DNA from: Haloferax marisrubri
GTDB lineage: Archaea; Halobacteriota; Halobacteria; Halobacteriales; Haloferacaceae
DNA length: 64,000 nt
NCBI RefSeq assembly: GCF_001469875.2
Contig: NZ_LOPW02000010.1
Coordinates: 655,924-719,923, forward strand
Direction of reading: 5' to 3'
The notes below the pieces were generated by a model. The model had not been told where the DNA came from. It did not search any database and saw only the letters and a program-made list of their open reading frames with translations. Both the position numbers and the translations under genes were made by a program. Numbering within the stretch: the first letter of the stretch is position 1; every line of letters begins with the position of its first letter. Positions 22,496 to 28,470 of this stretch are shown in pieces.

Positions 22496-22747
22496 TCACT
22501 CGTTAGCGCCGGGGTAGAGCGCCGACACCTGCCAGACGTTCGCGCGGACGCCGGCCCTGACGAGGTCCATCCGCACGCGGTCGCCGGCGTGGTGGTTCGC
22601 GAGGTAGTCGCGGTAGCTACTGTTCTCGTAGGACGTGACGTGGAACGTCGAGCCGTTGTCGCCGCGAAGTGTCGCCGCACCGTGGTCGTTTACCTCATTT
22701 ACGATTGTAAACGTATCCGGGCTATTTCTGGACGCTGTCTGAGACAT
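22496..22747 (-). CDS. small haloarchaeal protein, DUF7999-like
   Basis: The 83-residue protein has the pattern EVNDHGAATLRGDNGSTFHVTSYENSSYRDYLANHHAGDRVRMDLVRAGVRANVWQ. This suggests an OB- or SH3-like beta barrel and recalls the small DUF7999 family of haloarchaea (name from memory). A minus-strand TATA element (ttttat, 22773-22778) sits 26-31 bp before the ATG, predicting a leaderless mRNA. It is convergent with tef1A. Function is unknown. Confidence 0.75.
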   Translation of the reverse strand: MSQTASRNSPDTFTIVNEVNDHGAATLRGDNGSTFHVTSYENSSYRDYLANHHAGDRVRMDLVRAGVRANVWQVSALYPGANE

Positions 22748-23085: not shown

Positions 23086-24378
23086 TTAGTCACCCGCGTC
23101 GCCGCGAACTCCTCGTCGCACGTCGACGTAGTAGTCGCGGAGCACGTCCCGACCGATTCGAATCGGCGTCTCCGAACCCACGTCCTCGTCGAGCACCGCG
23201 GTCACAGTCCGTCGTTCGCCCGCGAGTTCGACCACGATATCAACCCGCGGCGGCGCGCCGTCCTCGACCGTCGCCGGCGGTTCGGTGCCGAGGTCGGCCG
23301 CCAACCGGGGTGCGATTTGCGTCGTCGAAGCCGTGGTGTCGATGCGCGCGAGCACTTCCTTCGACCCGCTGATGCCGGTGACGGTCACGCGCTCCGCGTG
23401 GCCGACGACGGGGGCCCGCTCGTCGCGGACGTGCGACGGAGCGTCCGCCGGGGGCGTCCCGTCGAGCGCGCGCCCGAGTCGTTCGACGAGCGCCGGGTCG
23501 GTGCGCCCGCCGGCCCGCTCGATTGCGAGGCGGGCGATGGCCGCCGCGGGCGACCGTCCGGTGGCGCGGAAGAGCCCGCGGAACCCCGCCGTCGGGTTCA
23601 CTTCGAGGACGACCCAGCCGTCGTCGCTCTCGATGAGGTCGACGCCGGCGTAGTCGAGGCCGAGCGTCCGCGTCGCCCAGAGCGCCGCCCCGGCGGCCCC
23701 CTGCGGGAGGTCCTCGGACGCGTCCTCCACGTCGCCGCCGAGGGCGACGTTCGTGCGCCAGTCGCCCGCCGGGGCGTAGCGGTACATCGCGCCGACGACC
23801 TCGTCGTCGACGACGTAGATTCGGAGGTCGCGGTGGCGCTCGCCCGCGTCGACGTACTGCTGGATGAACGCCCGGCGGCCGTCGACGGTCGCCGAGACGG
23901 CCCGGTCGTGGTCGACCAACCACGTCCCGCCGCCGTTGGTCCCGACGGCCGTCTTGTAGACGACCGGCGTCCCGAACCCGTCCCGCGCGGCGTTCAGTTT
24001 GGCGTCCGCGGTGGCCATGTACGTGTGCGGCACCGGGACGCCCGCGGCGGCCAGCCTGCTCGCCGTCGCGTGCTTGTGGACGGCGAAGAGGACGCTCCGC
24101 GGGTCGTTGAGCACGGGGCGAACCGCGGCGTAGCAACTGGCGATAGAGAGGTCTTCGAGCGGACTCGTCGATTTCGACAGCAGGAGTCGGTTGACCACCA
24201 CGTCGACCTCGGGGTCGAGCGTGACGCCCGACGGCGACACCTCGATGCCGACTGCCTCCTCGTGGAGCCAGACGGCCTCGTGGCCGAGCGCCGTGACCGC
24301 GTTGCTGATGGCTTTCGTCTCCCTGCTGTCGTGGAATCCCAGAATCCCTACTGTGACCGTCGGTTCGTCCCCACCCAT
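23086..24378 (-). CDS. RimK-type ATP-grasp ligase fused to a retropepsin-like (RimB/ATP-dependent zinc protease) domain
   Basis: The 430-residue protein has two parts. Residues about 1-300 are a RimK-type ATP-grasp amino-acid ligase: an N-terminal Rossmann-like part, then VVYKTAVGTNGGGTWLV for ATP binding and GVDLIESDDGWVVLEVNPTAGFRG for the Mg/ATP residues. Residues about 335-425 match the retropepsin-like PF05618 domain, with ARIDTTAS carrying the aspartyl-protease-type Asp near residue 346 and IRIGRDVLRDYYVDV at the end. Separate RimK and RimB proteins handle poly-glutamate tails in bacteria, and here both lie on one chain. The substrate (a ribosomal protein, a cofactor or another peptide) is not evident. 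Confidence 0.85.
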   Translation of the reverse strand: MGGDEPTVTVGILGFHDSRETKAISNAVTALGHEAVWLHEEAVGIEVSPSGVTLDPEVDVVVNRLLLSKSTSPLEDLSIASCYAAVRPVLNDPRSVLFAVHKHATASRLAAAGVPVPHTYMATADAKLNAARDGFGTPVVYKTAVGTNGGGTWLVDHDRAVSATVDGRRAFIQQYVDAGERHRDLRIYVVDDEVVGAMYRYAPAGDWRTNVALGGDVEDASEDLPQGAAGAALWATRTLGLDYAGVDLIESDDGWVVLEVNPTAGFRGLFRATGRSPAAAIARLAIERAGGRTDPALVERLGRALDGTPPADAPSHVRDERAPVVGHAERVTVTGISGSKEVLARIDTTASTTQIAPRLAADLGTEPPATVEDGAPPRVDIVVELAGERRTVTAVLDEDVGSETPIRIGRDVLRDYYVDVRRGVRGDAGD

Positions 24379-24543: not shown

Positions 24544-26112
24544 TTACTCGGTTTCGGTGACGCTCACGGTGTAACTCCCGCTCCCGGAGTAGCTGTCGAC
24601 CAGCACCGAGAGGTCCGTCGACGCGTCGGGGTTGTCGATGACTATCTGCTCTTCGCTGTCCGTGGTCCACGACCGGTAGTCGTACGACCCGGTCGTGGGA
24701 CACGTCCCCGAGCCCTCGTTGACGTAGAGGTCGAAGTCGGCGCTCGCCGGGCCGCTGAGGTCGACGACGACCTGCGACGGCGAATCGTACTCCCACGCGT
24801 AGCTCCAACAGTCGGAGTCGGCCGACGACGACAGCGAGTCGTCGATGGTCGAGGTGGTCGAGTCGCCACCGCCACCACCGCCGCCGCCACCGCCGCTTCC
24901 CGGTTCGGTCGTGACGGCGTTCGCGGCGTCCACGCGGCCCGCGCCCTGTTCGTTCTCCGAGAGGCCGATATCGACCGCGGTGTTCTTGAGTTGGCTCCGC
25001 AGGTCGGCCGGCGAGAGGTCGTAGACGGCGAGCGTGAGCCCGGCGACGCCCGAGACGACCGGCGTCGCCATCGACGTGCCGGATATCTCCTTGTACTCGG
25101 TGTCGGTCGTCCAACACGACAGCACGTTTGTCCCCGGCGCGGCGAGGTCGATGTCGGTGCCGTAGTTGGAGTACGACGCCAGCGTCTCGTCGGGGTCGAG
25201 CGCGGAGACAGCGACGCACTCGCTGTAGGCGGCGGGGTACGAGACGCTCCCGCTCCCGTCGTTGCCGGCGGCGGCGACGACGAGGCTCCCCTGCTGGGTC
25301 GCGTACGACACGGCGTTTTTCATCGTGGACGTGTAGCCGCCCCCGCCGAGCGAGAGGTTGATGACGTCAGCGCCCTGGTCTGCGGCCCACTCGATGGCGT
25401 CGGCGATGTCGCTCGTCGAACCGCTGCCGGACTCGGAGAGCGCGCGCCCCGAGAGGAGCGACGAGTCGCTGATGCCGCCGATACCTTCGCTGTTGTCGGT
25501 CGTGCCGGCGGCGATGCCGGCGACGTGCGTGCCGTGGTACTCGTCGGCGAGCACGTCCGGATACGGGTCGCCGTCGGCGTCGACGAAGTCCTGGCCCTTG
25601 TCGGAGGCGAACTGCGCCGAGAGGTCGGGGTGGTCGTATTTGACCCCTTGGTCGACCACGGCGACGGTCACGTCGGAACTGCCGAGCGTGGTGTCCCACG
25701 CGGTGTCGGCGTTCACCTGCTGTGGCGCGTACTGACTGCCGTACTGTGGGTCGTTCGTCGTGTAGAGCGCCTGATGGGTGACGTTCTTCTCCGCGTACTT
25801 CACCTCGTCGCGCTTCGTGACCGCCGAGATGAAGTTCTCGCGGGCGCGGTCGGCGGCGACCGACGGGAACTCGACCGCCACGTAACTGAGGGTCTTGTTC
25901 TCGTGGACGACCGTCGCGTTGCCGGGGACGTGCTTCTCGACGGCCTTTCGCGGGCTGTCAGCCGTCTTCGAGACGCCGACGAGAATCTCGTCTTTCTTCG
26001 GACCGGGGGACCGTCCGGGCGTCGCGGAGGTCACGCCGGCCGCGCCGGTCAGCCCGGCGGCCGCGGCGAGTTTCAGGAAGGTTCGTCTGTCGAAGTTCGG
26101 TGTGCCTGCCAT
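24544..26112 (-). CDS. halolysin-type subtilisin-like serine protease, Tat-exported
   Basis: The 522-residue preproprotein has a twin-Arg signal (FDRRTFLKLAAAAGLTGAAG), an I9-type inhibitory propeptide (about 35-115) and a subtilase domain. Its triad is Asp in VAVVDQGVKYDHPD near 149, His in YHGTHVAGIAAG near 193 and Ser in SGTSMATPVVSGV near 345. A Gly-rich hinge and a C-terminal PPC-like beta domain (about 410-522) follow. The start is the ATG at 26112; the ATG 10 codons upstream is less likely. It is probably secreted folded to degrade proteins in brine. A palindrome sits just upstream of its TATA box. Confidence 0.93.
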   Translation of the reverse strand: MAGTPNFDRRTFLKLAAAAGLTGAAGVTSATPGRSPGPKKDEILVGVSKTADSPRKAVEKHVPGNATVVHENKTLSYVAVEFPSVAADRARENFISAVTKRDEVKYAEKNVTHQALYTTNDPQYGSQYAPQQVNADTAWDTTLGSSDVTVAVVDQGVKYDHPDLSAQFASDKGQDFVDADGDPYPDVLADEYHGTHVAGIAAGTTDNSEGIGGISDSSLLSGRALSESGSGSTSDIADAIEWAADQGADVINLSLGGGGYTSTMKNAVSYATQQGSLVVAAAGNDGSGSVSYPAAYSECVAVSALDPDETLASYSNYGTDIDLAAPGTNVLSCWTTDTEYKEISGTSMATPVVSGVAGLTLAVYDLSPADLRSQLKNTAVDIGLSENEQGAGRVDAANAVTTEPGSGGGGGGGGGGDSTTSTIDDSLSSSADSDCWSYAWEYDSPSQVVVDLSGPASADFDLYVNEGSGTCPTTGSYDYRSWTTDSEEQIVIDNPDASTDLSVLVDSYSGSGSYTVSVTETE

Positions 26113-26157
26113 GGGCACACATGTCTCGGGAGACCGTGGCAATATTTGTTAGCTTGA

Positions 26158-27743: not shown

Positions 27744-27882
27744 GGACCGATCGGCGGCGAGGCGACCCACCGCCGAAACCGACGCACGAGTCGAATCGCG
27801 CCGTCTTCTCCCACGTCGTCGTCTCACACGGTCACAAGCAGGATAAGAAAGGCATTTGAGTCCGGCACGGGAGGTTGTAGGT

Positions 27883-28470
27883 ATGACCGAGGCCGAGGAA
27901 CGATACTACTCGCCGGAACGCTGGCAGAACTGGTTGACGCGCGTCGAAGAAGAGGACCTGGACCTCGAAAGCGAGGAGACCGGCCGTCTCCTGATGAACA
28001 TCCAGAACGACGCGGCCATCGCCATCGCCAAGATTCTGACCGCCTACGACGACGACACGCTGGGCGAAGAGGAAGCACTTGACGAGCTTTCGACCGTCCA
28101 CGACATCGTCATGGCCGAACCCGAGTTCGAGTCGGAGAACGAGGAGGCCGAAATCCTCATCGGGAGCGTCCAGACGAGCCTCTCGTGTGCCTTCTTCGCC
28201 GCCGAGGAGTTCATCGTCGCCGGCCCCGCCGAACTCGAAGACGACATGGACGCCTACATCCGCGCGGCCGCGGACGCCGAGGCCGCCGACGACCTCGACA
28301 GCGCGCTCGGCTACATCGTCCAGGTCGGCACCCGCGTCATCGACGGCGAGGAACTCGACATCGAGGTCCTCGACGAACTCGAATTCGGACTCGTCACCGA
28401 GTGGGTCAACGGTCTCGACAGCCTCCAGAGCGGCCTCTCGGAGCCCGAGGTCGTCGAAGAAGAAGACTGA
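27883..28470 (+). CDS. DUF2150 family protein
   Basis: The 195-residue, highly acidic, mostly helical protein begins MTEAEERYYSPERWQNWLTRVEEEDLDLE. I recognise this as the archaeal DUF2150 family, which has no known function. There is no membrane segment. The upstream frame to 27856 is not needed, since the ATG at 27883 matches the conserved N-terminus. Confidence 0.85.
   Translation: MTEAEERYYSPERWQNWLTRVEEEDLDLESEETGRLLMNIQNDAAIAIAKILTAYDDDTLGEEEALDELSTVHDIVMAEPEFESENEEAEILIGSVQTSLSCAFFAAEEFIVAGPAELEDDMDAYIRAAADAEAADDLDSALGYIVQVGTRVIDGEELDIEVLDELEFGLVTEWVNGLDSLQSGLSEPEVVEEED

What the first reader, a model, noticed from the sequence alone, without database searches (positions are those of the whole stretch)
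23086..24378. Ligase and putative protease of the RimK/RimB type on one polypeptide
An ATP-grasp glutamate-type ligase is fused to a retropepsin-like domain with an intact DT(T)A motif. In bacteria separate RimK and RimB together set the length of poly-glutamate tails. A fused pair suggests a self-contained tail-adding and trimming enzyme in archaea, with an unknown target.
Basis: partly seen in the sequence, partly recalled or inferred. Interest (0 to 1): 0.55.

Follow-up and report, generated by a model that had tools for sequence, protein, structure and literature searches.

The report
Archaeal glutamate ligase with faded protease
This salt-loving archaeon's gene joins an enzyme that adds the amino acid glutamate to a protein-cutting domain, but here the cutting part looks worn out, while its better-kept sister genes in salt-loving archaea mostly end in a glutamate tail that may be their own target.

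Summary
The gene is real (23086-24378, minus strand, 430 aa, Haloferax). Its N-terminal part is a RimK-type ligase with catalytic motifs kept. Its C-terminal ~100 residues have the RimB/DUF785 retropepsin fold, but the motif is not intact: DTTA replaces DTGA, the flap is 8-9 residues shorter, and 21 of 53 conserved RimB-domain positions are lost in its clade ("type B"), seen only in Haloferax among the genomes sampled. Of 97 other haloarchaeal fusions compared, one in this genome, 96 have D-T/S-G. Fusion is not new: haloarchaeal RimK with C-terminal DUF785 was noted in 2008; a bacterial RimBK hybrid (other order) was assayed in 2025. I read the window gene as a ligase with a non-proteolytic RimB-like domain.

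New here: 91 of those 97 end in Glu and 76 in Glu-Glu, against 48 and 1 of 324 background ORFs; type B, 0 of 14. Known RimK acceptors also end in Glu. Auto-glutamylation, trimmed by the enzyme's own RimB domain, would explain this but is untested. The link to the protease is loose: two fusions with broken motifs keep the tail; the six without terminal Glu have sound motifs.

The parts
23086..24378 (-). whole gene, 430 aa, ATG start, stop TAA; RimK-RimB fusion, type B
   Evidence: ORF; relatives of its own kind in 13 other Haloferax genomes, 71-94% identity
23533..24075 (-). ATP-grasp ligase core, residues 102-282; glycine-rich loop, R-x-N-V-x-x-GG and E-V-N motifs kept
   Evidence: Pfam RimK 1.3e-28; alignment to E. 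coli RimK 5zct 1.1e-20; 104 of 115 ligase columns conserved in non-B fusions are kept in type B
23101..23421 (-). RimB-like (DUF785, retropepsin-fold) domain, residues 320-426
   Evidence: AlphaFold pLDDT 78-92 per ten residues over 331-410, 62-64 at 321-330 and 411-420; 2pma Z 11.4 rmsd 3.0 over 102 residues
23329..23340 (-). degenerate catalytic motif D347-T-T-A (DTGA in relatives)
   Evidence: G kept in 96 of 97 non-B fusions and 2 of 14 type B
23248..23286 (-). shortened flap region, residues 365-377
   Evidence: 14-15 residues between LG and PxVD in 14 of 14 type B, 23 in 94 of 97 non-B
23089..23118 (-). C-terminal ten residues, no glutamate; the place where the other fusions carry a Glu tail
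   Evidence: 0 of 14 type B end in E against 91 of 97 non-B

Best explanation
The gene is a paralogue, seen only in Haloferax among the genomes sampled, of the RimK-RimB fusion that is widespread in haloarchaea. The ligase half is most likely active and joins glutamate (or a like amino acid) to an unknown acceptor. The RimB half keeps its fold but most likely no longer cuts; it probably serves as a built-in dimerising and ligase-stimulating module, as separate bacterial RimB raises RimK ATPase activity about fourfold. Shown: gene, domains, fold of the model, lost features, clade, selection. Inferred: ligase activity, loss of proteolysis, the stimulating role. The trimming enzyme of this cell, if there is one, would be the paralogue on contig C5.
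For: Ligase motifs kept against E. coli RimK. RimB-domain losses in type B: 21 of 53 conserved columns against 11 of 115 in the ligase, Fisher p 1e-5. G of DTG kept in 2 of 14 type B and 96 of 97 others; flap shortened in 14 of 14. Ratio of median pN to median pS over 78 Haloferax pairs: type B ligase 0.23, RimB-like 0.31; type A ligase 0.10, RimB 0.04: relaxed but still selected. B is one clade with a long stem (13 rows, SH-aLRT 100, quick tree). Fold kept. RimB raises RimK ATPase from 47 to 196 nmol/min/mg (PMC11957791 section 8); D31E abolished proteolysis while the mutant still interfered with wild-type RimB, taken there as dimer formation (section 6).
Against: The catalytic Asp is kept in 14 of 14 type B and Thr follows it in 14 of 14; the H. 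larsenii and H. elongans copies still read DTGA. I did not see, in the sections read, a test of whether RimB stimulates RimK without catalysis. I found no measured activity for an archaeal member.
Confidence: 0.55

Rival explanations
1. The window protein is still a working ligase plus protease, with DTTA tolerated and a changed, shorter flap for another substrate.
For: Catalytic Asp kept in 14 of 14; two copies read DTGA; domain still under purifying selection, pN/pS 0.31; fold kept.
Against: Loss of the DTG glycine, part of the flap and conserved R positions; the RimB domain evolves faster than its ligase, the reverse of type A.
Confidence: 0.18
2. A small-molecule or carrier-protein ligase (CofF-, MptN- or LysX/ArgX-like) that has taken over the RimB fold as a substrate-holding domain.
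For: Scores with the MptN (119.9 bits) and LysX (113.6) models exceed that with the S6 ligase (75.9).
Against: All three are far below their equivalog cut-offs of 350, 275.6 and 331; the genome has two further RimK-like genes in frames of 306 and 291 residues that could do such work.
Confidence: 0.17
3. A decaying duplicate with little function.
For: The H. massiliensis copy (L030) has a 33-residue in-frame deletion near the junction of ligase and RimB domain; one of 15 sampled Haloferax genomes, G012, shows no such copy.
Against: No internal stop in the 14 sampled copies, pN/pS 0.23 and 0.31; the neighbouring EF-1alpha-like gene is kept in 8 of 8 loci from 7 genomes.
Confidence: 0.1

Closest known systems
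Haloarchaeal RimK with C-terminal DUF785/PF05618 (e.g. Q5V351; noted in PMC2530865, 2008)
   Same: same order of domains, same class; this is the family
   Different: window copy has a degenerate RimB domain and no Glu tail; the passages read give no function, motif or tail
RimBK hybrid of Desulfotalea psychrophila (PMC11957791, 2025)
   Same: ligase and RimB domain on one chain; its RimB part cut polyglutamylated RpsF
   Different: RimB is at the N-terminus there; RpsF glutamylation was not observed; the word archaea does not occur in the main text
RimABK of Pseudomonas fluorescens
   Same: RimK adds Glu, RimB removes it and stimulates RimK
   Different: separate proteins; target is bacterial ribosomal protein bS6 (RpsF), absent from archaea as far as I recall
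RloABC of Pseudomonas aeruginosa (PMC12239564)
   Same: RimB-like retropepsin with an ATP-grasp partner
   Different: secreted protease, separate genes, membrane partner RloB
Adjacent rimB-rimK pairs of Woesearchaeota and a Nanoarchaeota genome (L034-L037)
   Same: stand-alone archaeal RimB-like proteins with DTGA, next to a RimK gene
   Different: two genes, RimB first

Membership tests
RimK-family alpha-L-glutamate ligases (TIGR00768) | profile score above curated cut-off | tested here: met
   152.9 bits against 143.4
RimK-family alpha-L-glutamate ligases (TIGR00768) | ATP-grasp motifs as in E. coli RimK | tested here: met
   motifs line up in the alignment to 5zct; that these are the catalytic ones is recalled
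30S ribosomal protein S6--L-glutamate ligase (NF007764) | equivalog cut-off 331 bits | tested here: not met
   75.9 bits
RimB / A2-type retropepsin | retropepsin (DUF785) fold | tested here: met
   2pma Z 11.4, rmsd 3.0, 102 aligned, model residues 320-426; a predicted model
RimB / A2-type retropepsin | catalytic D-T/S-G motif | tested here: not met
   DTT in the window protein; G in 2 of 14 type B, 96 of 97 others
RimB / A2-type retropepsin | match to PF05618 or NCBIfam RimB NF052261 | tested here: not met
   neither listed at E<=1; the own-genome paralogue scores 37.4 bits for PF05618, cut-off 27, but it too does not list NF052261 at 0.001
RimB / A2-type retropepsin | cleavage of polyglutamate | not testable with these tools
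   needs purified protein
RimBK hybrid (D. psychrophila type) | RimB domain N-terminal to RimK | tested here: not met
   RimB-like domain is C-terminal, residues 320-426
Haloarchaeal RimK-DUF785 fusion | RimK domain followed by RimB-fold domain in a haloarchaeon | tested here: met
   97 non-B and 14 B fusions compared
Haloarchaeal RimK-DUF785 fusion | Glu-ended C-terminal tail (found here) | tested here: not met
   window protein ends GDAGD; 0 of 14 type B end in E

The most novel reading that the evidence does not exclude
The canonical haloarchaeal fusion (type A, the window gene's paralogue) is its own substrate: the ligase adds Glu to the enzyme's own encoded Glu-Glu C-terminus, in cis or on a partner subunit, and the RimB domain trims the chain once it is long enough to be cut, giving a self-set polyglutamate tail that could switch or gauge the enzyme. 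Type B lost acceptor tail and trimming and became a ligase free of this loop.
Probability: 0.3. Interest if true: 0.75.

Novelty: new variant of a known kind. Interest (0 to 1): 0.45.

Why it matters
Archaea have RimK-like enzymes but, as far as I recall, no bS6, so what they glutamylate outside cofactor and amino-acid synthesis is open. The Glu tail gives a named, conserved candidate acceptor, on the enzyme itself, that mass spectrometry of a model archaeon (Haloferax) can test. A natural paralogue without tail and with a broken protease motif is a ready control. The recurring AstE/AspA-family neighbour adds a candidate third component shared by bacteria and archaea.

Tried and rejected
Shine-Dalgarno artefact: GAG GAG at the 3' end could have been a ribosome-binding site of a following gene. 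Rejected on reading the 42 bases downstream: GAA and GAG both occur, stops vary, and I saw no recurrent start codon just downstream (by eye, not counted). General acidity of halophile proteins: rejected; in the last four residues the non-B fusions have 54% Glu and 3% Asp, the 324 background ORFs 12% and 8%, and the two other RimK-like genes of this genome (L023, L024) end in EVSA and AKKS. Strict link between protease and tail: rejected. L175 (motif NPA) and Natronosalvus L187 (DPT) keep EE; the six non-B fusions that do not end in Glu (L051, L052, L054, L063, L142, L159) all have D-T/S-G, though L051 and L052 have Glu-rich tails. The independent-pairs test could not decide (2 pairs); one of its two motif changes was a false pattern hit in L051, which the alignment shows to have G. 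A viral-contig search with type A found no relative; in the phage collection 21 records matched, none over 80% of the query, two (the YerA41 and GN1 phages) reaching into the RimB part. Among the 50 rows that VIA-align showed for the window model, 2pma alone lay over the C-terminal domain; other retropepsins did not appear, which does not exclude them. PF05618 hits at model positions 25-138 outside the haloarchaea (e.g. L090) are another protein with an HELEH motif and a deformylase-like score, not counted as RimB. PMC3403918 held the word polyglutamylation only in its reference list.

Limits: the 97 non-B fusions are a chosen sample (best matches, one or two copies per genome, 15 of them Haloferax), not random; related rows count apart; 84 distinct last-12 strings give 78 ending in E and 66 in EE, and the tree needs 5 changes of terminal Glu over 110 rows. 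Fisher p values ignore kinship. Background ORFs were called by a GC3 rule and some may be wrong; the same kind of rule missed the fusion itself in L045, so neighbour counts are rough. Dropped before counting: L055 (split by a stop) from the 112 rows, and L030 also from the tree; matches ending before query residue 380; identical proteins once. Of 11 haloarchaeal plasmid hits I fetched ten, not H48, whose record length and place match L175; L190 and L191 have stops within the match, and L193 (607 aa, ends GGQS) is against the tail rule. The window model's N-terminal part is poor (pLDDT under 50 over 1-101 and 134-174).

Full report
WHAT IS THERE. The ORF at 23086-24378 on the minus strand starts with ATG and encodes 430 residues. 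The genome has 26 contigs and 3.9 Mb, and the nearest named relatives of this gene are in Haloferax. Residues 102-282 match Pfam RimK at 1.3e-28, and the protein passes the NCBIfam rimK_fam cut-off (152.9 against 143.4 bits). The alignment with E. coli RimK (5zct, 1.1e-20) keeps the glycine-rich loop, the R-x-N stretch and the E-V-N motif. By sequence profiles alone the C-terminal part is nearly invisible: no PF05618 and no RimB or RloA model at E<=1, only Asp_protease_2 at 0.083. Structure shows it: residues 320-426 of the AlphaFold model match Legionella Lpg0085 (2pma, DUF785) with Z 11.4, rmsd 3.0 and 102 aligned residues; the whole model matches RimK first.

THE MOTIF IS NOT INTACT. By BLAST in the fetched loci of this genome and its relatives I gathered 112 distinct fusions: 14 of the window's own kind (type B), 97 others (called non-B; type A is the copy orthologous to that on contig C5), and one split copy left out. 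In an alignment with stand-alone archaeal RimB-like proteins, the catalytic Asp is kept in 96 of 97 non-B and 14 of 14 B. The glycine of DTG is kept in 96 of 97 non-B but in 2 of 14 B (window: Thr; the other 11: Ala). The stretch that bears the flap is 23 residues in 94 of 97 non-B and 14-15 in 14 of 14 B. Of 53 RimB-domain columns conserved in at least 90% of non-B sequences, B has lost 21; of 115 such ligase columns, 11 (Fisher p 1e-5). PMC11957791 calls the DTG motif wholly conserved in A2 proteases and shows that D31E abolishes RimB proteolysis (section 6 read).

TWO KINDS OF FUSION. This genome has a second fusion, G000:C5:98584-99900 (type A), 50% identical, with DTGATRTSID and PF05618 at 37.4 bits against a cut-off of 27. 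Matches at E<=1e-40 to the window protein occur in 105 of 119 sampled genomes of the family. A stand-alone haloarchaeal RimB-like query hits 83 of 99 genomes of the order, nearly always in open frames of 435 residues or more, long enough for the fusion. In a quick tree of the ligase part (110 rows), type B is one clade (13 rows, SH-aLRT 100, stem 0.94). Of 15 Haloferax genomes, 14 hold a type B copy (that of G003, H. massiliensis L030, with an internal deletion) and G012 none; no match of 70% identity or more was listed outside Haloferax. Over 78 Haloferax pairs, the ratio of median pN to median pS is 0.10 for the ligase and 0.04 for the RimB domain in type A, but 0.23 and 0.31 in type B. So the RimB domain is the most constrained part of type A and, of the two domains, the less constrained in type B, though still selected.

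MECHANISM. In Pseudomonas, RimB both cuts polyglutamate and raises RimK ATPase activity from 47 to 196 nmol/min/mg (PMC11957791 section 8). A domain that has lost cutting but kept the fold could keep the second role. I hold this as the best account of the window gene (0.55). The steps from 'motif lost' to 'no cutting' and 'stimulation kept' are inferred.

THE GLU TAIL. Beyond the finding: 91 of 97 non-B fusions end in Glu and 76 in Glu-Glu, while 48 and 1 of 324 background ORFs from the haloarchaeal loci do; B: 0 of 14. The tail before the end varies in length (1 to 39 residues past the last strand) and letters, yet positions -1 and -2 are Glu in 91 and 78 of 97. Among named, annotated plasmid copies, 6 of 6 end in EE, as does unannotated Natronococcus L192; L193 does not, L190 and L191 are broken. 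PMC11957791 lists native RpsF ends as DNADE (P. fluorescens) and GDSEE (E. coli), and found that RimB needs six or more contiguous Glu, or five when the first is the encoded terminal one, and does not cut an all-Asp tail (section 7). The encoded archaeal tails have runs of five or fewer Glu in 93 of 97 and terminal runs of five or fewer in all 97: acceptor-like ends, mostly short of that threshold. This fits auto-glutamylation with self-trimming; a docking or autoinhibitory tail would also fit. L175 and L187, with broken motifs, keep EE, and all six non-B fusions that do not end in Glu have sound motifs, so tail and protease are not strictly tied.

NEIGHBOURS. In 11 of 16 type A loci an AstE/AspA-family (PF24827, tested on L039) gene lies near the fusion, head to head with it in ten and about 2.8 kb away in L048; succinate-dehydrogenase-like genes follow in many (my reading of the sequences). 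On named haloarchaeal plasmids it is near in 3 of 6. The same family follows rimB-rimK in the six loci of family f19 with a bacterial-type RimB that I printed (Pfam-tested on L072) and lies beside rimK in Salinivibrio, Vibrio and Phaeobacter, not in Thioclava: 3 of 4 fetched. A search for papers with RimK and 'succinylglutamate desuccinylase' gave none. Type B instead keeps an EF-1alpha-like gene (my reading) and an 83-residue ORF as neighbours in 8 of 8 loci, from 7 genomes since L031 and L066 appear to be one contig. Three Woesearchaeota and one Nanoarchaeota genome carry rimB and rimK as adjacent separate genes; the Woesearchaeota RimB model matches retropepsins and DUF785 (1fmb Z 12.6, 2pma Z 10.9).

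PRIOR WORK. PMC2530865 (passages) states in 2008 that DUF785 lies C-terminal of the ATP-grasp domain in RimK of Halobacteria and N-terminal in some bacteria. PMC11957791 (abstract, passages, sections 6-8) describes bacterial RimBK; the word archaea does not occur in its main text. PMC12239564 and PMC7343187 were read in passages. I found nothing on a Glu tail or auto-glutamylation of such fusions in the open-access library: searches; most subscription papers are not covered.

VERDICT. The architecture is known and the window copy is the less canonical of the two in its genome; the conserved Glu tail of its relatives is the part worth testing.

Noticed in passing
L039:8542-9567 (+); also L070, L071, L072, L076, L077, L084, L179, L180, L181, L183, L185, L188: An AstE/AspA-family gene (PF24827) recurs beside rimK/rimB or the fusion in haloarchaea, in what I take for Methanosarcinaceae, and in marine bacteria; possibly a third component of a polyglutamate module.
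   Followed up: partly
L178:2120-3541 (Yersinia phage YerA41, gene 066): A phage protein annotated as structural is a RimK-RimB fusion (RimK 3.7e-37, PF05618 29.0 bits, cut-off 27), with RimB C-terminal as in haloarchaea and no Glu tail.
   Followed up: partly
L058:6630-7034: A stand-alone haloarchaeal RimB-like retropepsin (DTGAKRTSID) lies just downstream of a gene that I take from memory for a RIO2-type kinase.
   Followed up: no
L090:1375-1935: PF05618 ('putative ATP-dependent zinc protease') also scores 70 bits on an archaeal protein (family f19) with an HELEH motif and a peptide-deformylase-like match below cut-off, so the Pfam name may cover two unlike proteins.
   Followed up: no
L030:5908-7191: The Haloferax massiliensis copy of the window gene has a 33-residue in-frame deletion near the junction of ligase and RimB-like domain.
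   Followed up: partly
L182:1467-2840 (Thioclava sp. FTW29 plasmid): The annotated rimK gene has 178 residues ahead of its RimK match; it may be a RimBK hybrid of the bacterial order.
   Followed up: no
window 22496-22747 (-): An 83-residue ORF without Pfam match is conserved between the window gene and the EF-1alpha-like gene in 8 of 8 Haloferax loci (7 genomes) examined.
   Followed up: no
window 24544-26142 (-): A subtilase with a Tat-signal match below cut-off and a PPC domain is the next gene on the same strand.
   Followed up: no
window 27874-28470 (+): A DUF2150 protein, an uncharacterised archaeal family, ends in an acidic tail EPEVVEEED.
   Followed up: no
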